Shown piece by piece: positions 29,737 to 44,465 of a stretch of 48,224 bases of DNA. The stretch is from Acidobacteriota bacterium (GTDB taxonomy: Bacteria > Acidobacteriota > Terriglobia > Bryobacterales > Bryobacteraceae). Where the stretch lies: NCBI GenBank assembly GCA_016871015.1, contig VFZX01000014.1, forward strand, positions 1 through 48,224, in the 5' to 3' direction. The position numbers were made by a program, and so were the translations under genes. Position 1 is the stretch's first letter. The number at the start of each line of letters is the position of its first letter. The notes under the pieces were generated by a model. The model was not told where the DNA came from and did not search any database. It saw only the letters and a list, made by a program, of their open reading frames with translations.

Positions 29737-31527
29737 TCACCAGGCCAGCGCGTATGCATCCGCGCGCGGATCGGCGCCTGCCTGCAGGACTCCGTTGGCA
29801 CCCACTACGATCGCCGCGTTCAAGCCGATCGACCAGCCTCCGCCGGTCTTCAGCTTATGCCCGCGGCTGATCAGCTCCTTGCGGATGGAGTCCGGGATGC
29901 GGTCCTCGACCGTCACTTCGCCCGCGTACATCCGGTGTGGGAAATAGGACATCGGAAAACTGCGCGTGGACCAGCGGGGAGCCTCGATCGCGCGTTGGAC
30001 GTTCATCCCAAACTCGGCCATGTTGAGGAACGTCTGCATCGTGCGCAGGCACTGGTCGTCGCCACCGGGACTGCCGAGGATCATCGCAGGCTTACCGTCC
30101 TTCATCACCAGCGTCGACTGAAGTGTGCTGCGCGGGCGCTTGCCCGGCTCGAGCGCGTTGGCGTGGCCGCGGGTGAGCGAAAAATAGTCACCGCGGCAAT
30201 TGAAAGAGAATCCCAGATCGCCCATCACGACGTTGGTGCCAAAGCCGTTGTGAAGCGACGGTGTGAACGAGACCATGTTGCGGTGCTTGTCGACCACCGC
30301 GATGTAGGTCGTATCGCCGTTCTGTCCGCCTTCAGCCGACAGGTTGACATTGCCCGGCCGCTCGACCGCCGGAAATCCGGGCTGGAACTTCTCCGCCTCG
30401 CCGGGGCGGAATTCGAGCGAGGCGCGGCGCGGGTCGATCAGGGCGCGGCGGGAATCAGCGTAGGACTTCGAAAGCAGCCCTTCGAACGGAATGCGGATGA
30501 AAGCAGTGTCGCCCAGGTATTTCTCGCGGTCGGCGAAGGCGAGCTTGATCGACTCGATCGAGGTGTGGATGTAGTCGGGAGAGTTGTGGCCCATCTTCTT
30601 CAGGTCGTAGCCTTCGAGCAGGTTCAGCGCGGCGAGTTCGGCGGGACCCTGGTTGGACGACGCGTTCTTGTAGACCTGGTAGCCGCGGTAGTCCACCGAC
30701 ACCGGCTCCTCGAAGCGCGCCGCGTAGGTGGCGAAATCCTCGTAGCGGAACAGTCCGCCGTTGGCTTCGGAAAAGCTCGCCATCTCGCGCGCGATGGCGC
30801 CTTTATAGAACTCGTCGCGGGCCGCCTTCAGTCCGGCGCGGCGGCCATGGGACGAGGCGCGTTGTTCGGCTTCGACCAGACGGCGCATAGTGCGGGCGAG
30901 GTTCGGGAAGCGCGCGATCTCGCCACCCTTCCAGGTCTGCTGGCCGGGCAGCGGGAAGTAGTTGGCGGCTGACGACGGATACTTGCGCAGCCTCTTGGAT
31001 CCGTTGATGGCGCCCGCGAGCTTGTCGTTTATCGGGAATCCGTTCTCAGCCATGTCGATGGCCGGGGCGAGCACCTGGGCGAAGGTCATCGTGCCCCAGC
31101 GGTCGAGCATCAGGTACCAGGCGTCGATCACGCCGGGGACGGTGCCGGCGAGGAGTCCGTCGCTGTCGGGGAGCTTGCCGCCGTTGTGCTTTTCGAACCA
31201 TTCGATGGTGGCCAGCCGGGGCGCGGTGCCCTCGGCGTCGATCGAGACCACCTTGCCAGACGCCGCGTCGTAGACCAGGACTACTGCGTCGCCGCCGATC
31301 CCGTTGTTGTTCGCGTCGACGAGTCCCAGCACAGCTTGTCCGGCGACAGCGGCGTCGAATGCGTTGCCGCCTTGATGGAGGATCCGTTCGGCGACCTGGG
31401 TCCCTTCGAGCCTCATAGAGGAGACCGCATGGAAGCGGCCGAGGACGACGGGGCGGGTTTGAGGTTCGCGCCGGGCTTGGGGGAGGAGGGTGGCGGTGAG
31501 CAGCAGGGCCGAGAAAAGCAGCTTCAT
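29737..31527 (-). CDS. ggt: gamma-glutamyltransferase (gamma-glutamyl transpeptidase) precursor
   Basis: A 596-residue exported N-terminal nucleophile hydrolase that cleaves gamma-glutamyl bonds, for example of glutathione, in the periplasm. The signal peptide MKLLFSALLLTATLLPQA is followed by the family opening AVSSMRLEGTQVAERILHQG, GNAFDAAVA and DANNNGIGGDAV. The self-cleavage site is in NGDTTYIAVVDKHRNMVS, with the first Thr (about residue 406) becoming the nucleophile of the small subunit. Later PRSTLQSTLVMKDGKPAMILGSPGG is split here by normal family spacing and carries the oxyanion Gly-Gly. Length is normal (580-600). The open frame continues 120 codons upstream without family similarity; the ATG at 31527 gives the signal peptide and lies 10 bases from a consensus -10 box. 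Confidence 0.92.
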   Translation of the reverse strand: MKLLFSALLLTATLLPQARREPQTRPVVLGRFHAVSSMRLEGTQVAERILHQGGNAFDAAVAGQAVLGLVDANNNGIGGDAVVLVYDAASGKVVSIDAEGTAPRLATIEWFEKHNGGKLPDSDGLLAGTVPGVIDAWYLMLDRWGTMTFAQVLAPAIDMAENGFPINDKLAGAINGSKRLRKYPSSAANYFPLPGQQTWKGGEIARFPNLARTMRRLVEAEQRASSHGRRAGLKAARDEFYKGAIAREMASFSEANGGLFRYEDFATYAARFEEPVSVDYRGYQVYKNASSNQGPAELAALNLLEGYDLKKMGHNSPDYIHTSIESIKLAFADREKYLGDTAFIRIPFEGLLSKSYADSRRALIDPRRASLEFRPGEAEKFQPGFPAVERPGNVNLSAEGGQNGDTTYIAVVDKHRNMVSFTPSLHNGFGTNVVMGDLGFSFNCRGDYFSLTRGHANALEPGKRPRSTLQSTLVMKDGKPAMILGSPGGDDQCLRTMQTFLNMAEFGMNVQRAIEAPRWSTRSFPMSYFPHRMYAGEVTVEDRIPDSIRKELISRGHKLKTGGGWSIGLNAAIVVGANGVLQAGADPRADAYALAW

Positions 31528-31537
31528 TGTATTGGAA

Positions 31538-31543
31538 ATTATA
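31538..31543 (-). promoter_or_regulatory. consensus -10 box (TATAAT) upstream of ggt
   Basis: TATAAT on the minus strand ends 10 bases before the ggt ATG, which would place the transcript start about 3-5 bases from the start codon. A TTGCAA at about 31564-31569 is a partial -35 match, but the spacing of 20 bases is longer than usual. A perfect TATAAT is unlikely by chance in this GC-rich sequence. Confidence 0.45.
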
Positions 31544-31747
31544 CTTGGAATGCGCCGGAGCGATTGCAACCTGTGGGAGCGTCGGGCCGATAAGCTGCAG
31601 GGCCGGGACCGCGAATGGCGTCCAAGAGAGAAACCGACGGCCGTAATCGTGCCGATCACCCTGTGGAAGCAAATCGCGTAAACTACCAGCTCTGCGTCCG
31701 GCTGCGCGAAATTCCCCACCGCCCCGCCGGCATGTGCCAAATCCCCC

Positions 31748-31777
31748 TGGAAACGGGCTAAATCGAACAAAAATAAT
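31748..31777 (+). promoter_or_regulatory. possible sigma-70-like promoter for the molybdoenzyme/bc operon
   Basis: TGGAAA (31748-31753, four of six) and AATAAT (31772-31777, five of six) are separated by 18 bases. They lie 29 bases upstream of the first operon ATG at 31807. The 279-base gap between ggt and this operon otherwise shows no gene; no FNR-like or sigma-54 site was recognised. Confidence 0.3.
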
Positions 31778-31806
31778 GGCCCCCTGCGTGCAAACGAGAC
31801 ACTGTC

Positions 31807-33639
31807 ATGCAGGCGCTCCGCGCAGAGGTTCCTGGGGACGGCTACCACGCCGGGCTGATCTCCTGCCAGGCCGCTTGCCCGGTCCACACCGACGCCAGGG
31901 GATATGTCCGGGCGATCGCGGAGGGGCGGTTCGAGGAAGCATACCTGATTGCGCGGGGGCCAAATCCGTTTGCCTCGATTTGCGGCCGGATTTGCGGGGC
32001 GCCGTGTGAAGCAGCCTGCCGCCGCGGGAAGGTCCCGCGGGTGGACGATGATGGGCGCTTCGTTGCGGTGGACCGCCCGATTGCGATCCGGGCGCTAAAG
32101 CGGTTTGCCTGCGAACAGGCCGGTCCGGACAACGGGTGCGAGCCAGGTGAGATGCTGCGGCGCATCAGTGCCTGGGTCCCCGAGGTCTCGGCGCACGCCG
32201 ATGAGATGGCGGCGATCCTGCGGGCGGCGGCGAACGGAAAGGTCCGTAAGGGCGGCGGGCAGCGGGTGGCGATCATCGGCGCGGGTCCGGCGGGATTGTC
32301 TGCCGCGCACGATCTCGCGCTGTTGGGGTTCAAGCCCGTGGTTTATGAGACAGAGCCGGTGGCGGCGGGGATGCTTGCGGTTGGGGTGCCGGCCTACCGG
32401 CTGCCGCGGGAGGTGATCCGGCGGGAAGTGGCGGTGATCGAGGCGTTGGGAGTCGAAATCCGGTGCGGAGTTACGGTCGGCAAGGATATCGATTACGCGG
32501 AACTGAAGCGGGACTCAGGAGCCGTGATCGTCGCGGTGGGCGCCAAGTCGTCTCGCTCGCTCGGATTGCCGGGGGAACGGGGGCCGCGCGTGTATGGCGG
32601 AGTCGACCTGCTGCGGGCGGTGTCGCTCGGCGAGCCCATGAGCATCGGACATGAGGTAGTGGTCATCGGCGGCGGCAATGTCGCCTACGACGTGGCGCGC
32701 ACGGTGGTCCGTCAGATCGCTTATGACACCGCGCGGACCGCGGCCCGGCTCGCGGGAACCACGCACGTCGTCCTGGCCTCGCTCGAGGGACTCGAGGAGA
32801 TGCCCGCCGATACGCTCGAAATCCTCGAAGGCGACGAGGAGGGTATCGAGCGGATGAATGGCTGGGGTCCAGTCGAGATCCGGCGGGGGCCGGACGGAAT
32901 GCCAGTCTCGGTGGAGTTCCGCCGGTGCGTCCGCGTTTATGACGCAAACCGCAGATTCGCCCCGGCGTTCGACGACAGCGAGCGGCGGACGGTGTCCTGC
33001 GATACAGTGCTGCTGGCCGTGGGCCAGGCGCCGTCGCTCGGGTTCCTGGGAGAGGATCCGCGCGGAGAGATGAAGGCGCCGGGCGTGTTCGCCGCCGGAG
33101 ACCTCGCACACGGGACGCGGTTGCTCATAGACGCGGTCGCCTCGGGCAAGGCGGCAGCGCGGAGCGTGTATGAATACCTGACGGGGGAAAAGCTACAGAC
33201 CGAGGTGACGACGGCGCACGCGGTGATCGAACGTTACCGGCGCGAGCGGGGCTATGAGTCGATCCGGCGGCAGGCTGTGCCCACGTGCGAGCCGGAGGAA
33301 CGCCTGCGCCATCCCGACGTAGCCGTCGAGATGGGCTACACACCGGAGCTGGCGATGAGGGAAGCCTCGCGGTGCCTGGATTGTGGTGTGACGCCGGTGT
33401 TCGACGGCGCGCGGTGTGTGTTGTGCGGCGGGTGTGCCGACGTGTGCCCGACGCAGTGCCTGAAGCTGGTGCCGATGTCCGGACTCGAGCTGGCAGGCGT
33501 CGAGAGCGGCGCGGAGGACTCCGCAATCTTAAAGGACGAGGACCGGTGCATCCGCTGCGCGTTGTGCGCGATGCGCTGTCCGGTGGAGGCGATTTCGATG
33601 GAACGTGTCCTGACACAGACTGACTGGAGGATCCAATGA
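31807..33639 (+). CDS. GltD-like FAD/NAD(P) oxidoreductase with N- and C-terminal iron-sulfur domains
   Basis: A 610-residue cytoplasmic flavoprotein. The N-terminal Cys-rich domain (Cys20, 24, 59, 63, 67, 71; [13 protein letters not shown]) matches the Fer4_20 domain of the glutamate synthase small subunit. FAD binding is at [23 protein letters not shown](P) binding at [18 protein letters not shown], and the second FAD motif at [20 protein letters not shown]. After a C-terminal extension there are two CxxCxxCxxxCP motifs ([12 protein letters not shown] and [12 protein letters not shown]), giving a bacterial-ferredoxin-like tail. No glutamate synthase large subunit is nearby; the neighbours are Rieske and cytochrome b. 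A role linking NAD(P)H or ferredoxin to the bc-type complex is inferred. It is the first gene of the operon; its stop overlaps the Rieske start (ATGA). Confidence 0.85.
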
Positions 33640-34097
33640 GGCTCGATCCCGAACCCTTACCGCGGCGGGACTGGCTGGGGCTGGCCTCCTTATGGTCGGC
33701 GGCCTCGGCGCTGGCATTCGGATTCATCGGCGCAATGCGGCTGCCCAAGGCTGCCGTTGTGGCGGCACCCTCCAAGGCGCTTAAGCTGACGCTGCCGGAG
33801 TCGCTGCCAGCGGGTGAAGCGTTTGTCCCGCCGGGACGCGCGATGGCCGTGTTCCGCGACGGTGAAGGTGTCTACGCGATCTCAACGATCTGCACCCACT
33901 TGGGCTGCGTGGTCAAGCCGAATGCAGAGGGCTTCGAGTGTCCGTGCCACGGCTCGCGCTTTGACCACGCGGGCGGAGTGGTGAAGGGACCCGCGCCGCG
34001 GGCGCTGCCGTGGCTCCAGGTCCGGTTGGCCAATGGCGAAGTCCACATCGACGAAGGCAAGACGGTTCCGAGCGGGACCAAGGCGAAGCAAGCATGA
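33636..34097 (+). CDS. Rieske [2Fe-2S] protein of a bc-type complex
   Basis: A 153-residue protein with a Tat-type N-terminus ([12 protein letters not shown]) followed by a membrane anchor, then the Rieske fold. Box I CTHLGC (86-91) and box [10 protein letters not shown] (102-109) give ligands Cys86, His88, Cys102 and His105, with Cys91 and Cys104 placed for the usual disulfide. The spacing is that of quinol-oxidising bc-complex Rieske proteins rather than dioxygenases. The globular domain lies in the periplasm and moves electrons from quinol to cytochrome c. It overlaps both neighbours by four bases, coupling it to the flavoprotein and cytochrome b genes. Confidence 0.92.
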
Positions 34098-35644
34098 GCC
34101 CGAGCACCGAGCAGCGGCCGCCTTTGGCGGAATTCTGGGACAACCTGCGCGCGGCGCCGCGCCGGATCCTGGACACCGCGTTCCGCGGCGGGAGTCCGTC
34201 GACCGACCGCACGCGGTCAACCTTCGTGTTCGGAAACGTGTTCCTGCACCTGCACTCGGCCCGCGTTCACCGCTGGACGCTGCGTTGGACGGCAACCGCC
34301 GGGCTTGGAATCGCCACGACGGCTGCCTTCCTGATCACGCTGGTGACGGGCGTCCTGCTGATGTTCTACTACAAGCCTTACCCGGACGTCGCCTACCAGT
34401 CGATCAAGGACATCCACTTCGTCGTCCCCACCGGCCGCTTCATGCGCAACATCCATCGATGGGCGGCGAACGTGATGGTGGTGACTGTGATTCTACACAT
34501 GGCTCGCGCCTTCTATACGGCGGCCTACCGGAAGCCGCGCGAGTTCAACTGGGTGATCGGGATGGGGCTGCTGGCGGTCACGCTGGGACTCTCCTTTACC
34601 GGATATCTGCTGCCGTGGGACCAGCTTGCCTATTGGGCGATCACGATCGGAGCCAATATCGCGCAGTCGCCACGGGAGGTGACCGACGCGCTGGAGATCA
34701 CTGAATGGTTCGATCCGGGCGGATTCCAACGTGCGCTGCTGCTCGGGTCGGAGGTTGTGGGTGAAGAAGCGCTGATCCGCTTCTACCTGCTCCATGTCAT
34801 GATCCTGCCGCTGGTGCTGGTGGGGTTGATGAGCATCCACTTCTGGCGGATCCGCAAGGACGGCGGACTGGCGCGTCCCGTCGATGCGGACCAGCGGCTG
34901 GAGCCCGAGCCCGGCGTGTATCCGGTGTTCACGCAGGCGCCGGAGAAGACCTACCAACTGGCGGCCGTCGTCGAGGGCCGGACGCCGGCGGTCGGCCGTG
35001 GTCCGGAAAACACCGTGCCCTCGATGCCGCACCTGTTCTACGCCGAGTTGGGCGTGCTGATGCTTACGACGCTGATCTGTGTCGCGCTGTCGATCGTGTC
35101 GGACGCGCCTCTGAAGGAGCTGGCAAATCCGAGCGTGCCGGAGAATCCGGCCAAGGCGCCGTGGTACTTCCTCGGCCTGCAGGAGCTGGTCGCTTTCTCA
35201 GCATTCATGGGCGGAATCGGGATTCCCACGATCGTGCTCGCCGGACTGGGGTTGATTCCCTATCTCGACCGGGAATCCGAGGGCACGGGCCTGTGGTTTG
35301 GCGGACCCGGCGGATGGCCGCTGGTGAAGCGCGCGCTGGTGGTGGGATTCGGCGCGTCGATCCTGGTGGAGGCGTTCGTGATCCGGTACGGCTGGATCCG
35401 CGAGTGGTTCCCCAGCGTCGGCCAGCTTGTGGTGACGGTCCTCAATCCCGGGACGCTGTTGACATTGATCTACGGCGCTTACTCGGTGTGGCTTGTGAAG
35501 CGCTATCGTTCGACGCGCGCGGGCGCGCTGGGGTTGTTCACTTGTTTCCTGTGCGGATTCCTGGTGCTGACGGTGGTCGGGACATATTTCCGCGGTCCGA
35601 ACTGGGACTTCTACTGGTCGCCGTCGCAATGGCCGAGGCATTGA
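34094..35644 (+). CDS. cytochrome b of a bc-type complex (b6 plus subunit IV in one chain)
   Basis: A 516-residue membrane protein that would bind two b hemes and oxidise quinol. Heme ligands are His121 and His135 (13 residues between) in helix B, and His234 and His249 (14 between) in helix D. The 14-residue spacing in helix D is the b6-type form. The Qo-site loop [10 protein letters not shown] at about 357 (preceded by Lys-Ala, not Pro-Glu) replaces PEWY, a variant seen in several bacterial b-type cytochromes. A C-terminal extension adds about four helices, giving subunit IV and more. The open frame reaches to 34010, but the ATG at 34094, with an ATGA overlap to the Rieske gene, is the natural start. 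Confidence 0.92.
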
Positions 35645-35649
35645 ACGCG

Positions 35650-37293
35650 ATGAAGAAGAACAAAATCCTGCTTCTGGTGTCGAGCATTGGCGTGTTCGTG
35701 CTGCTGGCCGCGGCTGCCATCGACGAGAACTTCTTGAAGCAGTGGCGCCGGATTCAGGCATCCGGCAGCCACGACGGCGAGCCGATCCCGGTGCAGTTGC
35801 GGCAGGTGGTGAACATGGGTCTGCGTACTGCCGACCGCTGCGTGAGTTGCCACGTCAGCATGGGACCGGGCGAGGATGGTGTCACCGGGAATGCGTTGTT
35901 CAAGAAACATCCGCCGGTGGTGCATGATCCGGCGCAGTACGGATGCACGGTTTGCCACGGCGGACAAGGATTGGCAACCGAAAAGGACGATGCGCACGGC
36001 ACGGTCCACTTCTGGCCCGAACCGATGATCCCGGCGGCAGTGGCCGAGGCCGGATGCGGAACCTGCCACGCGGCGCCTGGAGTTCCATCCCGCGACACGC
36101 TACGGCAGGCGCGGGCCACGTTCGAACGGCTGGACTGCGGGGCGTGCCACCGCGTGGATGGGCGCGGCGGGACGATCCGTCCGGACGGTGGTGGCATGGA
36201 GGGTCCGGACCTGTCGCGTGTGGGGATCACGGGTTATGACGCGGGATGGCACGGCAAGCATGTGGCCAAGGCGGCCGCCGCGGACAAGGGTCCGTGGAAG
36301 ACTTCGTTCGCGCCCGTGCCGGAGGCGGACCAGGGGGCTGTAGCGATGTACCTTGCCGTACGCAACAGTGCGCCGAGGCTGACCGAAGCCAAGTCCGTGT
36401 TCCTGAGCTACGGGTGCCTGGGCTGCCATCGTCTGAGCGGAGTGGGCGGGGACGAGGGTCCCGATCTGACACGCGCCGGAGAGCGGGATCCGGGCCAGAC
36501 CGACTTCACGCACGTGCCCGAACAGCAGGGCCTGGACAACTGGATCGCCGAGCATTTCCGTTCGCCAGGCGCTGTGATGACGGGGTCGAAGATGCCGGCC
36601 GTGGCGGCCCCCGAGTCCGACATCCAGCAGTTGACGATGTTCGTGCTTTCGCTGCGGCGGCGTGAACTGCCCGGCGCGTATATGCCAAAGGACCGGATCG
36701 CGGTGGCGCGGATGGGGCAGCGCGAGTTCGCCCCGGATGGCGCGACCATCTACGGTGCGTTCTGCGCCGGCTGTCACGGCCTCAATGGCCTGGGACGGAC
36801 GAGCGGCGATGAAACGTTTCCCGCAATTGCGAATCCGGAGTTTCAAAAGCTCGTCACGGACCGGTTCCTCACGGAGACGATCGCGCGGGGACGGCCGGGA
36901 CGCAGGATGCCGGGTTGGAAAAAGGAAGGCGGGCTGCGGCCCGAGGAGATCCGCGTAGTGGTGGAGCACCTTCGCGCGCTGGCCGGTGTGACGGGACGGA
37001 CCGAAGAGGACGCATGGAAGGCGAACGGGTCCACCGCGGAAGGCCGCAAACTGTACGCGGCGGCATGCGCGGGCTGCCATGGCGACAAAGGCCAGGGTGC
37101 GAAGGGGCCGTCGCTTGGAACCAGGGCGTTCCTCGAAGTGGCCACCGAAGGCTACCTGCGCGACACCATCACCAAAGGCCGTCCGGGTACCGTCATGCCC
37201 GCATTCGGCGAGCCGTCGACGGTGCACCGGACTTTGACGCCGGGGGATGTGGAATCGATCGTGACCTTCATCAATTTATGGAAGGGGAAGTAA
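35650..37293 (+). CDS. heptaheme membrane-anchored cytochrome c
   Basis: A 547-residue protein with an N-terminal anchor ([19 protein letters not shown]) and seven CXXCH sites: CVSCH (64), CTVCH (99), CGTCH (136), CGACH (163), CLGCH (256), CAGCH (372) and CAGCH (473). The last three lie in separate mono-heme class I domains, each with a downstream Met region (SKMP, RRMP, TVMPAFG). The first four are close together in a multiheme head. It replaces the single-heme c1 subunit of a bc complex and could pass electrons on to the molybdoenzyme complex. The start at 35650 follows a GAGG at 35635-35638 and gives the anchor directly; an ATG at 35629 would add seven residues and overlap cytochrome b. 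A long upstream frame is spurious. Confidence 0.88.
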
Positions 37294-37297
37294 CGCT

Positions 37298-40744
<3,447 letters not shown>

Positions 40745-40746
40745 AG

Positions 40747-41874
40747 ATGGCACGCGTTTATAACTGGCAACTCGGACGGGAGATGTCGTACTGGTATCCG
40801 GAGAGCCGCCCCCAGCGGCAGTTCGCGGCCGTGTTCGACACCAACAAGTGCATCGCATGCCAAACCTGCACGCTGGCATGCAAGACCACCTGGACTTCGG
40901 GCCGCGGGCAAGAGTACATGTTGTGGAACAACGTGGAATCGAAGCCGTACGGATTCTATCCGCTGGCCTGGGACCTGAAGCTGCTGGACATGCTCGATGG
41001 TGGCAAGTGGAACGGCAGCCGTTACGAGGGGCAGACTGTCTTTGAGTCCGCTCCGGCGGGCGAGCGGGTGCTCGGCTGGCGGCCGGAGTCGGAAGACTAC
41101 GCCTACCCGAACTGTGGCGAGGACGATTGCGCGGGCCAGGTGGATGGTGGCGCCAGCATGGCCATGCCGCACATGAACTGGTTCTACTACCTGGCGAGGA
41201 TCTGCAACCATTGCTCCTACCCAGCTTGTCTGGCGTCGTGCCCGCGCGGGTCGATCTACAAGCGCCCTGAGGACGGAATCGTGCTGGTGGACCAGGGCCG
41301 GTGCCGGGGCTACCAGGAGTGCGTCAAGGGTTGCCCGTACAAGAAGGTGTTCTTCAACCCGATGACCGGAACGTCGGAGAAGTGCATCGCCTGCTTCCCC
41401 AAGATCGAGCAGGGAATTCAGCCCCAGTGTTTCGTGAACTGCATTGGCAAGATCCGGATGGCGGGGTGGATCTCGAAGCCTCAAGACGCGCGGCCGGAGA
41501 ATCCGATCGACTACCTGGTCCACATCAAGAAGGTGGCGCTGCCCCTGTTTCCGCAGTTCGGGCTGGAGCCGAATGTCTACTACATCCCGCCGGTGCATGT
41601 CCCCACGGCGTTCACGCGCCAGATGTTCGGACCCGGTGTGGACGACGCCATCAAGACTTACCGCAACGCGAAGAACGATCCGGATCTTGCAGGACTGCTG
41701 TGCCTGTTCGGATCGAGTGAGATGGTGATGCCGCGCTGGCGGCGGCAGGGCGACACCGTCACCGGACTCGACGAGAAGGGCAACGCGCTGGTCCGCGTGC
41801 CGATGAACGAGCCGGTGCACGTGCGTCCGGCATACGACAAGCTCTACCAGATCGCACGCACGAACTGCCCGTAG
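40747..41874 (+). CDS. type II molybdoenzyme iron-sulfur beta subunit (NarH/EbdB-like)
   Basis: A 375-residue protein with four cluster sites. Site I is [11 protein letters not shown] (Cys35, 38, 41, 45); site II is [14 protein letters not shown] (153, 156, 161, 165). Site III is [15 protein letters not shown] (186, 192, 196, with Tyr189 in place of Cys, so probably [3Fe-4S]). Site IV is CIACFP followed by CFVNCIG (213, 216, 228, 232). The order and spacing match beta subunits of ethylbenzene dehydrogenase, selenate reductase and DMS dehydrogenase. It has no signal peptide and is presumably exported with the Tat-bearing alpha subunit. It carries electrons between the alpha Mo site and the heme b gamma subunit. 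The start is ATG 40747 after a GAGAGAGGA ribosome site; an upstream frame extension overlapping alpha is rejected. Confidence 0.92.
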
Positions 41875-41883
41875 GAGGACGCC

Positions 41884-42735
41884 ATGACAATGAAGAGGAA
41901 GCTGGCACTGGCAGGCGCGCTCATGGCCACGGTGGCGTGCCAGACCAAAGCTCCGGTGGCGAACGAAGTGGTTGCCATGCCGGTGGCGAAGCTGCCAGCC
42001 GCGCCGCAGGACTCCGGGTGGTCAGCGGCGTCTGAACACACAGCAAAGCTGCTGCCGCAGGACCTGGTGGATCCGCGTTTGATGAAGGCGTCGACCGCTG
42101 AGGTGCGGGTCCGCGCAGTTGCGAGCGGGTCCGAGATCGCCTTCCGGCTCGAGTGGACCGACCCCGTGGTGAACGACCTTCCCGGACCGGGGCGGTTCCT
42201 GGATGGCTGCGCGATCCAGATTCCGCGGGTCCGCGAAGCGAATCCTCCCGATCCCCAGATGGGCCAGGCGGCCAAGCCGGTCGACATCGCGTTCTGGCGG
42301 GCGGACTGGCAGGCGTCGGTGAACGGCCGCGAGGACTCGATCCGTGCGCTGTACCCGAATGCGGCCGTAGACCACTACCCGTTCGAGGCCAAGTCCATCG
42401 AGCCGGGGTCGGCAGTGGCAAAAGAGATGGCGGCGCGATATGCCCCGGCCCAGGCGGTGGGAAACCGGCGTGTGGGGCCGCGCGTCTCGCCCGTGGAGGA
42501 CATGGTGGCGGAGGGGCCGGGGACGCTGTCCCCGGGTCCAGGGGGGTCGCGTGGGAAGGGTGAGCGGACGGACGGCGGGTGGTCCGTGATGATCGTGCGG
42601 AAGATGCCAGAGGGGCTGGCGCCGCGGCAGCGGACCCAGATCGCCTTCGCTGTGTGGGAGGGCTCGAAGGAGGAGACAGGGGCGCGGAAGATGCGGACAG
42701 GTTGGATTCCGCTATCGGTGAAGGAGTCCAAGTGA
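41884..42735 (+). CDS. ethylbenzene-dehydrogenase-type heme b gamma subunit (lipoprotein)
   Basis: A 283-residue exported protein of the EB_dh family. The N-terminus MTMKRKLALAGALMATVAC has a lipobox-like end with Cys19, so it may be a periplasmic lipoprotein. The core contains AFRLEWTDPVVND, PDPQMGQAAKPVDIAFWRAD and a late RTGWIPLSVKES, which matches EbdC/DdhC/SerC-type subunits that bind one heme b by Met and Lys. Met126 in PQMGQ is the likely Met ligand and a late Lys the other. A Gly/Pro-rich insert lies at about 211-227. It accepts electrons from the beta subunit and could pass them to the heptaheme cytochrome. The ribosome site is AGGAGG at 41873-41878. Confidence 0.87.
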   Translation: MTMKRKLALAGALMATVACQTKAPVANEVVAMPVAKLPAAPQDSGWSAASEHTAKLLPQDLVDPRLMKASTAEVRVRAVASGSEIAFRLEWTDPVVNDLPGPGRFLDGCAIQIPRVREANPPDPQMGQAAKPVDIAFWRADWQASVNGREDSIRALYPNAAVDHYPFEAKSIEPGSAVAKEMAARYAPAQAVGNRRVGPRVSPVEDMVAEGPGTLSPGPGGSRGKGERTDGGWSVMIVRKMPEGLAPRQRTQIAFAVWEGSKEETGARKMRTGWIPLSVKESK

Positions 42736-43355
42736 CCGTAGAGGGACTTGCCGGCGAACGGCTGCGGGAGGCGGCGGAGTGGAGGTTGATCTCGCTGCTG
42801 TTTGAATGTCCGTCGGCGGTGTGGCGCAGCAGTGTCGCGGAGATGGCTGGTGAGGTGGGGGATTCCGACCTCCGCGAAGCCGCGGGACGGGCGCAAGAGG
42901 AAGCCTCCGAGGGGCTCTATCATTCGACGTTTGGTCCCGGCGGTCCGGCGCCGCCGCGCGAGGTGACGCACCGGGACATGATGCAGCTTGGGTACCTGAT
43001 GTCCGAGCTTGACACCTATTACCGCGCGTTCGGCTTCCAGCCGTTGGGCGCCGAGCCGCCCGATCACATTGCGGTGGAAGCGGGATTCGTGTCGTACCTG
43101 AAGTTCAAAGAAGCGTATGCATTGGCGTGCGGGGATGGCGAGGCGGCTGCGGTGGTGGCCAGCGGCTGCGCGGAGTTCCTCAAAGAGCACCTGTCGTCAA
43201 TCGCGACGCCGATGGCGGAGGCTTTGGCGGGCTCCGGTGTCTTATACCTGGAGGCGGTGGCCAGGGCGCTCGCGCTGCGGACGCCAGTGGCGAAGCCACG
43301 GTTCGTGGTGCTGGATGGCGCGGCGGAGGATACCGAAACCTGCGGTGCATGCTAG
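42732..43355 (+). CDS. TorD/NarJ-like molybdoenzyme assembly chaperone
   Basis: A 207-residue, mostly helical cytoplasmic protein of the TorD/DmsD/NarJ superfamily, which binds the Tat signal of the alpha subunit and holds it for cofactor insertion. The family-like core is YHSTFGPGGPAPPREVTHRD followed by LMSELDTYYRAFGF and PDHIAVEAGFVSYL. The C-terminus ends CGAC (a CxxC pair), unusual for the family as I know it. The start is a GTG overlapping the gamma stop (GTGA, 42732-42735). The upstream frame extension inside the gamma gene is rejected. It is last in the operon. Confidence 0.85.
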   Translation: MTVEGLAGERLREAAEWRLISLLFECPSAVWRSSVAEMAGEVGDSDLREAAGRAQEEASEGLYHSTFGPGGPAPPREVTHRDMMQLGYLMSELDTYYRAFGFQPLGAEPPDHIAVEAGFVSYLKFKEAYALACGDGEAAAVVASGCAEFLKEHLSSIATPMAEALAGSGVLYLEAVARALALRTPVAKPRFVVLDGAAEDTETCGAC

Positions 43356-43367
43356 GATCGTACCGGA

Positions 43368-43928
43368 ATGGCTCTCGCGGCACGGCGGTACACAGAACTT
43401 GAATACGCGGCGATGGAGGAGATGGCGGACCACCGCAGCGAGTTCTTCAACGGTGAGATCTTCGCGATGACTGGCGGGACACGGACGCATTCGCGATTGT
43501 GTATCGCGGTGCTGCTGAGGTTGGAGACCGGGGTGGCCGGCAGCCGGTGCGAGGTGCTCGACTCGAACCTGAGAATCCGCATCGCGGCGACAGGGCTTCA
43601 GACTTACCCGGACGCGAGCGTCGTGTGCGGAGATGCCCAATTCTGGGGGCAGTCCGAAGATTGCGTCATGAATCCCCGGCTAATCGTCGAGGTGCATTCC
43701 AAGGGAACCGCATCCTACGGCCGGGGGAAGAAGTTCGAGCATTATAAGCAGATCCCTTCGCTGCAAGAGTACGTGCTGGTTTGGCAGGACCGGATGCGGA
43801 TTGAGGTGTTCCGGCGCGAAGCGGGGTGGGCCGGTATTGCGGCCGAGGGTCCCAGCGCAACCGCCCGGCTGGAGAGCATCGGTGTGGATCTGCCACTGGC
43901 CGGGATCTACACCGGAATTCTGCGATAG
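43368..43928 (+). CDS. Uma2 family (DUF820) restriction-like nuclease protein
   Basis: A 186-residue PD-(D/E)XK-fold protein. The motifs are YPDASVVCG (catalytic-type Asp), PRLIVEVHSKGT (Glu; usually EVLSPST) and GRGKKFEHYKQIPSLQEYVLV (Lys in the following helix). Uma2 proteins are abundant in Cyanobacteria, Chloroflexi and Acidobacteria; their role is unproven, sometimes linked to mobile elements. It begins 12 bases after the TorD-like stop, but its content is unrelated to the operon and it may be transcribed with it only by read-through. Confidence 0.88.
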   Translation: MALAARRYTELEYAAMEEMADHRSEFFNGEIFAMTGGTRTHSRLCIAVLLRLETGVAGSRCEVLDSNLRIRIAATGLQTYPDASVVCGDAQFWGQSEDCVMNPRLIVEVHSKGTASYGRGKKFEHYKQIPSLQEYVLVWQDRMRIEVFRREAGWAGIAAEGPSATARLESIGVDLPLAGIYTGILR

Positions 43929-43937
43929 CATAAGGCC

Positions 43938-44465
43938 ATGAGCACGCTTGCCACTCTGATGACAGTGGAGGAGTACCGCCGGTTGCCGAATCCGGGAAAC
44001 GGGGCTCACTACGAACTTCATCATGGGGAGGTAGTGCTGGTGTCCGCACCGAAGCAGCGTCACGTGGATAAGCAGGTGAGGATCGCCCAGATCTTGGGCG
44101 AGGCGCTTCGTTCGTTCGGATTCTGCTGGACCGAAGTGCCGTTCCGGCCGGCGCCGGAACATGAAGTCTGGGTCGCGGATGTCGCTGTCGTCTCGTGGGA
44201 GCGATGGCGGTCGATTGATCCCGACGACAATCTGGGGGGCGCTCCGGAGATTGTGGTCGAGGTGATGTCCCCATCCAATACGTGGACTGAGATGGAGGAC
44301 AAGGCTGAGACCTGCTTCGCTGGAGGCGCACTTCAGTTCTGGACGGTCCGGACCGACGGGGAGATCACGGTGAGAAGCCGCGACGGAGTCAACAGGACAT
44401 TCTCTCCCGGAGTCCCGATCCCTATGGATGCCTTCGGGATTGGGCCTGTCACGGTTCCAGCCTGA
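43938..44465 (+). CDS. Uma2 family (DUF820) protein, second copy
   Basis: A 175-residue member of the same family as the upstream gene but clearly divergent. The motifs are MTVEEYRRLPNPGNGAHYEL (typical opening), WVADVAVVS (Asp), EIVVEVMSPSNT (Glu) and EDKAETCFAGGALQFWTV (Lys; usually followed by Y-x-x-x-G-x-x-E-Y-W). The terminal LQFW in place of x-E-Y-W is a small change. It lies nine bases after the first Uma2 gene, so the two form a pair. Tandem Uma2 genes are common in genomes where the family is expanded. Confidence 0.87.
   Translation: MSTLATLMTVEEYRRLPNPGNGAHYELHHGEVVLVSAPKQRHVDKQVRIAQILGEALRSFGFCWTEVPFRPAPEHEVWVADVAVVSWERWRSIDPDDNLGGAPEIVVEVMSPSNTWTEMEDKAETCFAGGALQFWTVRTDGEITVRSRDGVNRTFSPGVPIPMDAFGIGPVTVPA

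What the first reader, a model, noticed from the sequence alone, without database searches (positions are those of the whole stretch)
31807..43355. Eight-gene operon joining a Rieske/cytochrome b complex, a NAD(P) flavoprotein and a periplasmic type II molybdoenzyme
Seen: GltD-like flavoprotein, Rieske, b6-like cytochrome b, heptaheme cytochrome c, Tat-exported molybdoenzyme alpha, beta, heme b gamma and TorD-like chaperone, mostly overlapping or within 10 bases of each other. Known: type II enzymes (EbdABC, SerABC, DdhABC, ClrABC) usually pass electrons through soluble cytochromes, or in NarGHI through a NarI subunit; none of these is classically encoded in one operon with its own bc-type complex. 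Inference: a dedicated supercomplex links quinol (or NAD(P)H/ferredoxin) to a periplasmic Mo enzyme via seven c hemes. From memory, anammox planctomycetes have bc complexes with NAD(P)-binding subunits, which makes the flavoprotein part plausible. The substrate is unknown, so this may be an undescribed respiratory system.
Basis: partly seen in the sequence, partly recalled or inferred. Interest (0 to 1): 0.85.

Follow-up and report, generated by a model that had tools for sequence, protein, structure and literature searches.

The report
NXR-type nitrate reductase with own bc-complex
An eight-gene operon in acidobacteria and some other bacteria appears to wire a nitrite-oxidoreductase-like enzyme, probably working as a nitrate reductase, to its own NAD(P)-linked cytochrome bc-type complex, which could change how such genes are counted in nitrogen-cycle surveys.

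Summary
The eight genes are real (31807-43355, + strand) and form a conserved operon: in 46 of 49 unique related loci with enough flank (alpha at least 62% identical) all eight occur in the same order. The molybdoenzyme is not of unknown kind: alpha, beta and gamma each match Kuenenia nitrite oxidoreductase best among solved structures and keep its Mo, cluster and heme ligands, but alpha lies in a sister clade. The bc module (GltD-like flavoprotein, Rieske, b6-type cytochrome b, heptaheme c) has the parts of the NAD(P)-linked complexes of anammox bacteria. Related modules in the same family carry another type II enzyme or a cbb3 oxidase in the same slot, so the attached enzyme is probably a terminal reductase. 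Ammonifying nitrite reductase NrfA co-occurs (17/23 vs 10/44 family genomes; 19/29 vs 75/345 phylum genomes) and sits beside the operon in two genomes; none of 23 carriers tested has NirK or full-scoring RuBisCO. Best reading: a quinol-dependent periplasmic nitrate reductase that opens ammonification. Whether NAD(P)+ is reduced by electron bifurcation, and even the direction of catalysis, need experiments.

The parts
31807..33639 (+). GltD-like NAD(P)/FAD flavoprotein with N-terminal Fer4_20 and C-terminal 2x[4Fe-4S] domains (610 aa)
   Evidence: Pfam PF14691, PF07992, PF00037; NCBIfam PRK12771-like, below cut-off; best PDB match 9bov (same sequence as 9bp5), 230 bits; 17 Cys kept in at least 65 of 66 rows
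33636..34097 (+). Rieske [2Fe-2S] protein, CPCHGSRF (Ser/Phe pair)
   Evidence: PF00355; best PDB match 9rk4, 68.6 bits, which is Kuenenia Kuste4569 (PMC12954380 Table 1); Ser-Phe in 65 of 70 relatives, Ser-Tyr in 5
34094..35644 (+). cytochrome b6-type b fused to a subunit-IV-like C-terminal half (516 aa)
   Evidence: PF13631/PF00033; cytb_ExtP and memb_ExtQ, both below cut-off; model with five long helices after residue 305, mean pLDDT 65; His52 in 71 of 71 rows
35629..37293 (+). membrane-anchored heptaheme cytochrome c, C-terminal part QcrC-like
   Evidence: 7 CXXCH and one N-terminal hydrophobic helix; PF13442/PF00034; bc1_QcrC_actin below cut-off over residues 353-549; weak Foldseek matches to actinobacterial bc cytochrome cc
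37298..40744 (+). alpha: NXR-type molybdopterin subunit with twin-arginine signal (1148 aa)
   Evidence: PDB 7b04_B Kuenenia NxrA 838 bits over residues 7-1140; PcrA 183, EbdA 137, NarG 122; 37% identical to Kuenenia over 957 columns; C66, N69, D70, D273 conserved
40747..41874 (+). beta: Fe-S subunit, NXR-B type
   Evidence: 7b04_A Kuenenia NxrB 382 bits, PcrB 226
41884..42735 (+). gamma: heme b subunit (EB_dh family), probable lipoprotein, Met126/Lys269 heme ligands
   Evidence: 7b04_C Kuenenia NxrC 68.6 bits; Met in 104/104 and Lys in 103/104 rows of all tiers, duplicates included; PF09459
42732..43355 (+). delta: TorD/NarJ-type assembly chaperone
   Evidence: PF02613 above cut-off; TIGR03482 below cut-off

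Best explanation
The operon encodes a periplasmic NXR-type enzyme that works mainly as a nitrate reductase and is fed by its own quinol-oxidising Rieske/cytochrome b complex. Proposed path (inferred): menaquinol is oxidised at the P side; the high-potential electron goes Rieske -> heptaheme cytochrome c -> heme b of gamma -> Fe-S chain of beta and alpha -> Mo, reducing nitrate to nitrite, which in most carriers NrfA can reduce to ammonium. The second, low-potential electron either recycles quinone (Q cycle) or passes through the GltD-like flavoprotein to NAD(P)+, as proposed for the anammox complexes. Shown: gene content and conservation, NXR kinship and motifs, kinship of the Rieske to a Kuenenia one, module swapping, NrfA association. 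Inferred: physical complex, direction, quinone type, use of the flavoprotein.
For: NXR kinship of all three subunits and active-site/ligand motifs. Cyt b of 72% or more in 23/23 carriers and 0/44 non-carriers of one family, one match partial. Related modules carry other enzymes in the slot: a type II alpha of the TIGR03479 group in 4 of 4 loci with a 59-62% cyt b (L207, L208, L209 above cut-off, L210 cut by the contig end; L209 matches PcrA with 931 bits) and CcoN of a cbb3 oxidase in both of the ~50% loci inspected. NrfA: 17/23 vs 10/44 (p 7e-5); 17/23 vs 9/30 with a 94% completeness filter on both sides (p 0.002); 9/15 vs 4/34 among genomes without NarG/NapA (p 0.001; 9/15 vs 4/24, p 0.013, with the filter); phylum 19/29 vs 75/345 (p 2e-6), and 0/19 in genomes with an alpha of the ~40% tier. 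NrfH and NrfA genes follow the operon in G473 (L074); an nrfA pair lies about 2.5 kb away in G225 (L219). NirK 0/23 and RuBisCO above 400 bits 0/23 in carriers.
Against: Sequence cannot fix direction: Kuenenia NXR itself works both ways (PMC8387239). 6 of 23 family and 10 of 29 phylum carriers lack NrfA at the thresholds used. Some carriers also have NarG (5/23) or NapA (5/23). One family and one phylum were profiled, and genomes share ancestry. CO2 fixation other than RuBisCO was not tested. NirK is also nearly absent from non-carriers, so it says little. Adjacency is not a complex. Gln539 replaces a His of Kuenenia NxrA, so catalysis may differ. In G225 the alpha and gamma frames are broken in the assembly.
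Confidence: 0.7

Rival explanations
1. Nitrite oxidation with reverse electron flow: nitrite electrons enter through the NXR-type enzyme and the heptaheme c, go partly to a terminal oxidase, and are pushed backwards through the bc module to the flavoprotein to make NAD(P)H, as in nitrite oxidisers.
For: The closest characterised relative is a nitrite oxidoreductase; a bc module with an NAD(P) flavoprotein would suit reverse flow; nitrite oxidation by a heterotroph is conceivable.
Against: The clade is sister to, not inside, the Kuenenia NXR clade; carriers often have NrfA, and none of 23 has a full-scoring RuBisCO; related modules carry a cbb3 oxidase or a TIGR03479-type enzyme in the same slot.
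Confidence: 0.15
2. The Mo enzyme reduces another oxyanion (chlorate, perchlorate, selenate, iodate) or another substrate, nitrate being incidental.
For: A sister module carries an enzyme closest to PcrA; Gln539 instead of His sets the clade apart from Kuenenia NxrA.
Against: At the columns of PcrA Phe164, Tyr165, Tyr168 and Trp461 (roles recalled, no call) the window has Asn267, Tyr268, His271, Tyr574, the same as Kuenenia NxrA and different from PcrA at three of the four; link to NrfA.
Confidence: 0.1
3. Two functions in one transcript: the bc module serves general respiration and the NXR-type enzyme takes its electrons elsewhere.
For: Alphas at 57-62% identity lack the bc genes (0 of 15); two loci inside the clade lack them (L142, L155); in 7 of 23 carriers this cyt b is the only one found at E 1e-30, so there it may be the general one.
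Against: 46 of 49 loci keep both halves; the ortholog is absent from 0/44 non-carriers; 16 of 23 carriers have at least one further cyt b match (in G124 one of these is a second operon copy).
Confidence: 0.05

Closest known systems
Nitrite oxidoreductase of anammox Kuenenia stuttgartiensis (NXR-ABC, PDB 7b04; PMC8387239)
   Same: Best PDB match of alpha, beta and gamma; full-length alpha; Mo-ligand Asp, Asn, Asp ligand of the FS0 cluster, Met/Lys heme b ligands
   Different: 37% identity over 957 columns, separate sister clade; Gln for His at residue 539; operon with bc module; direction probably reductive. The tubule subunit NXR-T was not looked for
NAD(P)-linked Rieske/cyt b complexes Kuste4569-4574 and Kustd1480-1485 of Kuenenia (PMC12954380)
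   Same: NAD(P) flavoprotein with several Fe-S clusters (four modelled there; four inferred here from cysteines), Rieske, b6-like b plus long subunit IV, multiheme c; in Kuste4569-4574 also a dedicated enzyme (HAO-like)
   Different: Cyt b and subunit IV fused here (separate in six more distant loci by ORF length); seven hemes; NXR-type enzyme; no cysteine at the b6 Cys35 position (Gly70)
[quoted passage not shown] PMC2483277)
   Same: Eight-gene operon with Rieske, cytochrome b, Tat-exported Mo subunit, beta, chaperone; nitrate reduction outside the membrane
   Different: Alpha of 983 aa named NarG; no NAD(P) flavoprotein or multiheme c named in the passage read
Caldithrix abyssi Nap cluster with Rieske and cyt b (PMC5317091)
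   Same: Nitrate reductase cluster with its own Rieske/cyt b and an adjacent nitrite reductase thought to form ammonia
   Different: NapA-type enzyme, NapM, eHao
EbdABC / SerABC / DdhABC / ClrABC type II enzymes
   Same: Alpha-beta-gamma-delta plan, heme b gamma, TorD-like chaperone
   Different: Alpha scores 292 bits on TIGR03479 against a cut-off of 985

Membership tests
Periplasmic NXR (anammox/Nitrospira type) | Full-length homology of A, B and C subunits | tested here: met
   838, 382 and 69 bits, each the best PDB match
Periplasmic NXR (anammox/Nitrospira type) | Mo-ligand Asp, substrate Asn, Asp ligand of FS0 | tested here: met
   D273 72/72; N69 and D70 70/70 rows with letters; roles from PMC8387239
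Periplasmic NXR (anammox/Nitrospira type) | Met/Lys-ligated heme b in C subunit | tested here: met
   Met126 104/104, Lys269 103/104
Periplasmic NXR (anammox/Nitrospira type) | Branches inside the clade of characterised NXR | tested here: not met
   Sister of the clade of Kuenenia NxrA plus anonymous sequences (seven, six) that are 57-68% identical to it; support 99-100. Nitrospira and Nitrospina NxrA were not in the tree
Periplasmic NXR (anammox/Nitrospira type) | Nitrite oxidation in vivo | not testable with these tools
   needs physiology
Anammox-type NAD(P)-linked Rieske/cyt b complex | NAD(P) oxidoreductase subunit with Fe-S clusters | tested here: met
   best PDB match 9bov/9bp5, and 9bp5 is also the fold match named in the paper for the Kuenenia subunit
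Anammox-type NAD(P)-linked Rieske/cyt b complex | Rieske of the same kind | tested here: met
   9rk4 (Kuste4569) best of 70 PDB sequences, 68.6 vs 57.8 bits for the next; 9rk3 (Kustd1480) ranks lower, 49.9 bits
Anammox-type NAD(P)-linked Rieske/cyt b complex | b6-like b with subunit IV part of five helices | tested here: inconclusive
   Five long helices in the model, but mean pLDDT 65
Anammox-type NAD(P)-linked Rieske/cyt b complex | Extra heme b site: His before helix A plus Arg after helix D | tested here: inconclusive
   His52 and Arg254-Lys255 in 71/71 rows; spacing 202 in the window and 50 loci, 190 in 7, 13 not parsed, vs 204 from the paper's numbering; Kuenenia cyt b was not aligned; Arg-Lys there is common in b6 (recalled)
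Anammox-type NAD(P)-linked Rieske/cyt b complex | Heme cN (b6 Cys35) | tested here: not met
   b6 residue 36 aligns with window 71 (6rqf), so Cys35 = Gly70; Gly in 64, Tyr or Phe in 7 of 71 rows
Type II EbdA/SerA/DdhA/ClrA/PcrA group | TIGR03479 above curated cut-off | tested here: not met
   292.3 bits vs 984.75
NarGHI | Integral membrane diheme NarI gamma subunit | tested here: not met
   gamma is EB_dh type without predicted membrane helix
Haloarchaeal pNar system | NarG-type alpha in operon with Rieske and cyt b | tested here: not met
   Operon plan met, alpha type not: E. coli NarG 122 bits vs NxrA 838; no haloarchaeal sequence was compared

The most novel reading that the evidence does not exclude
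A nitrate-driven electron-bifurcating supercomplex: each menaquinol pair is split at a bc complex, one electron falling to nitrate through the heptaheme cytochrome and an NXR-type enzyme, the other lifted through low-potential hemes b and an Fe-S flavoprotein to NAD(P)+. It belongs to a modular family in which one NAD(P)-linked bc core is combined with swappable high-potential terminal reductases (NXR-type, PcrA-type, cbb3 oxidase, and HAO-like in anammox).
Probability: 0.35. Interest if true: 0.87.

Novelty: new variant of a known kind. Interest (0 to 1): 0.64.

Why it matters
If right, NXR-type genes of this clade in Acidobacteriota, Planctomycetota and Myxococcota mark nitrate reduction and often ammonification, not nitrification; metagenome surveys that count nxrA by profile (for instance PMC8141241, which reports NXR-encoding genomes as more common than those for the first nitrification steps) could be over-calling nitrite oxidisers. 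That such surveys caught this clade is inference. It also gives the unresolved NAD(P)-linked bc complexes of anammox bacteria many natural relatives with an identifiable high-potential partner, which makes the bifurcation proposal testable outside anammox cultures.

Tried and rejected
Rejected: membership of alpha in the TIGR03479 group, NarGHI. No tRNA, tmRNA or Rfam match at the gathering score in the window. Tried without result: FNR, NarL, NnrR, CRP, NsrR boxes in 350 bases upstream of the first gene in 56 sequences (2 of 56 FNR sites vs 0.2 in shuffles, 2 of 56 CRP sites vs 0; too few to use). Foldseek of the heptaheme model gave one match at E below 0.001 (chain B of a Kuenenia HAO-like complex) and weak matches to bc cytochrome cc. 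A MAG titled Nitrospira japonica (L175) held only the 59% alpha, so no canonical Nitrospira reference entered the tree. Papers were searched (listings seen; ten papers opened, by outline, passages or sections; none read whole); none described this operon in what I saw. Supplements, preprints and most subscription journals were out of reach.
Full report
Observation. Pfam and NCBIfam give the same reading for each: GltD-like Fe-S flavoprotein, Rieske, b6-type cytochrome b whose two halves best match ExtP and ExtQ of a selenite/tellurite operon (below cut-off), a cytochrome c with seven CXXCH, molybdopterin alpha, Fe-S beta, EB_dh-type heme b gamma and a NarJ/TorD-like chaperone. Alpha begins with a twin-arginine signal (RRxF invariant in 12 aligned sequences).

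What the molybdoenzyme is. Against all PDB sequences alpha matches Kuenenia stuttgartiensis NxrA (7b04) with 838 bits over its whole length, PcrA 183, EbdA 137, NarG 122; identity to the part of Kuenenia NxrA that I had is 37% over 957 columns. Beta matches NxrB with 382 bits, PcrB 226; gamma matches NxrC with 69 bits. Residues named in the NXR structure paper (PMC8387239; outline and passages seen) are present: Cys66, Asn69, Asp70 and Cys74 in 70 of 70 window-clade sequences with letters there (72 in all), Mo-ligand Asp273 in 72 of 72, heme ligands Met126 (104 of 104) and Lys269 (103 of 104) of gamma in rows of all tiers. A clean difference is Gln539: 72 of 72 in the window clade, 21 of 28 in the 57-62% band (7 have His), while Kuenenia NxrA, PcrA and 7 of 7 sequences of the ~40% tier have His.

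Phylogeny. FastTree on 109 sequences and IQ-TREE (quick) on 56 both put Kuenenia NxrA with anonymous Acidobacteriota sequences of the ~40% tier (57-68% identical to Kuenenia) in one clade and the window in a large sister clade, with support 99-100. PcrA was outgroup only, on a long branch that the tool warns about; one search is midpoint-rooted. Nitrospira and Nitrospina NxrA were not available; the structure paper calls them closest to the anammox enzymes, so I place them on the Kuenenia side by inference.

Spread and conservation. Close alphas occur in 36 of 200 genomes of the host's family, its own included, and alpha-like genes in 51 of 396 genomes of its phylum: 29 in the window's tier (69% or more, its own included), 3 near 60%, 19 near 40%. 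Of 120 loci with flanks (40 anonymous, 80 named) 13 were duplicates; among unique loci with at least 6.5 kb upstream, 3.5 kb downstream and under 5% N, all eight genes in order were found in 46 of 49 with alpha of 62% or more, 0 of 15 at 57-62%, 0 of 3 below 45%. The three exceptions are L091 (masked stretch), L142 and L155. Of the 46, 5 carry Planctomycetota and 4 Myxococcota titles, one (L122) an Acidimicrobiia title, the rest are of the window's phylum; L116, also titled Acidimicrobiia, is the same locus as L073 from a genome that the tool puts in the window's phylum, so those titles are doubtful. On the 56-row tree the bc genes (27 rows with, 17 without, 12 unknown, labelled by hand; Kuenenia counted as without) need three changes, one gain and two losses being enough, against 13.7 in shuffles.

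What the bc module is. Its Rieske best matches 9rk4 (68.6 bits against 57.8 for the next), which is Kuste4569 of Kuenenia (PMC12954380 Table 1). That 2025 study (first part, section 13, first part of section 14, and passages seen) describes two Kuenenia complexes with an NAD(P) oxidoreductase, b6-like cytochrome b, long subunit IV and multiheme c, measures Rieske potentials of +303 and +335 mV, and supports an older proposal that they bifurcate quinol electrons to NAD(P)+ and to a high-potential acceptor; for Kustd1480-1485 no acceptor had been proposed. The window module has the same parts, and its flavoprotein best matches 9bov/9bp5, the NfnABC entry that the authors found as fold match of their NAD(P) subunit. 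The Ser/Phe pair of the window Rieske is that of Kustd1480. His52 before helix A is invariant in 71 rows and lies 202 residues before Arg254 (190 in 7 loci, 13 not parsed), against 204 from paper numbering; this is suggestive only. One feature differs: the b6 cysteine that binds heme cN is Gly70.

Module swapping. A cyt b of 72-100% identity is in 23 of 23 carriers (in G081 partial) and 0 of 44 non-carriers of the family. Four non-carriers (G001, G019, G033, G049) have a 59-62% cyt b; in all four the order flavoprotein-Rieske-cyt b-cytochrome c-alpha is kept (beta seen in three; L210 ends inside alpha) with a different alpha: L207, L208 and L209 pass TIGR03479 (1126, 1114, 1106 bits), L210 covers half of it, and L209 matches PcrA with 931 bits. 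In the two inspected loci with a ~50% cyt b (L211, L212) the core sits with CcoN of a cbb3 oxidase; CcoO was identified in L211 only. Other ~50% loci were not looked at. An NAD(P)-linked bc core with exchangeable partners, one of them a terminal oxidase, points to the reductive direction for the window enzyme. Against a dedicated role: in 7 of 23 carriers no other cyt b was found at E 1e-30.

Host physiology. I compared 23 carriers of at least 94% completeness with 44 non-carriers taken in handle order and not filtered by completeness. NrfA: 17/23 vs 10/44, p 7e-5; with both sides at 94% or more 17/23 vs 9/30, p 0.002; without NarG or NapA 9/15 vs 4/34, p 0.001 (9/15 vs 4/24, p 0.013, with the filter); carriers collapsed by genus 11/15 vs 10/44, p 0.001. 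NirK: 0/23 vs 1/44, the one below cut-off. RuBisCO above 400 bits: 0/23 vs 2/44; 12 more genomes have 210-234-bit matches, 9 of them carriers, which I read as RuBisCO-like proteins. NarG 5/23 vs 9/44, NapA 5/23 vs 1/44 above cut-off. The window's own genome has NrfA and no NarG or NapA match over cut-off; a NasA-like gene lies by an NrtA-like gene, by eye. In the phylum NrfA (E 1e-60) is in 19/29 window-tier genomes, 0/3 near 60%, 0/19 of the ~40% tier and 75/345 with none of these; only seven of the 19 were placed on the tree. In G473 NrfH (TIGR03153, above cut-off) and NrfA genes follow the chaperone on the same strand; in G225, whose alpha and gamma frames are broken, a convergent nrfA and a tetraheme gene lie about 2.5 kb away. 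No other of the 120 loci has NrfA in its flank. P-values ignore shared ancestry.

Mechanism. Best supported: a quinol-dependent periplasmic nitrate reductase that opens nitrate ammonification. Whether the low-potential electron recycles quinone or reduces NAD(P)+ is open; with menaquinone near -75 mV (recalled) and nitrate/nitrite at +420 mV (PMC8387239) bifurcation to NAD(P)+ would be downhill overall. Nitrite oxidation remains the main rival.

Comparison with what is known. Gene clusters joining Rieske/cyt b to a nitrate reductase exist: the Haloferax mediterranei nar operon (PMC2483277 passages) and the Caldithrix Nap cluster (PMC5317091 passages); a Rieske-cyt b route to nitrate reductase is also proposed for Methanoperedens (PMC5244752 passages). 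The present operon differs in its NXR-type enzyme, NAD(P) flavoprotein and heptaheme cytochrome. It is a new variant built of known kinds; my paper searches did not show it described.

Noticed in passing
L207-L210 (G033, G001, G049, G019): Sister operon: flavoprotein-Rieske-cyt b-cytochrome c core with a type II molybdoenzyme of the TIGR03479 group (PcrA-like in L209) in place of the NXR-type one.
   Followed up: partly
L211 and L212 (G042, G023): Related core with Rieske, cyt b, heptaheme c, CcoN (and CcoO in L211) of a cbb3 oxidase and the flavoprotein in one cluster.
   Followed up: partly
L094-L100 and other ~40% tier matches: 19 of 396 Acidobacteriota genomes carry an alpha of the ~40% tier; the seven placed are 57-68% identical to Kuenenia NxrA and group with it, and none of the 19 has NrfA: possible nitrite oxidisers in the phylum.
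   Followed up: partly
L097 (G330): Two alphas of the ~40% tier on one contig, about 5 kb apart.
   Followed up: no
window 43368-44465: Two neighbouring genes that look by eye like Uma2-type (DUF820) proteins follow the operon on the same strand; no search run.
   Followed up: no
window 29737-31887, - strand: Gamma-glutamyltransferase-like gene, by eye, read divergently from the operon; its 5' end as listed overlaps the start of the flavoprotein gene, so its real start is probably further inside.
   Followed up: no
family genomes: RuBisCO-like matches (210-234 bits) are commoner in carriers (9/23) than in non-carriers (3/44), p 0.002; unexplained.
   Followed up: no
L175: MAG titled Nitrospira japonica has only the 59% NXR-like alpha at E 1e-60, so the title may be wrong.
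   Followed up: no
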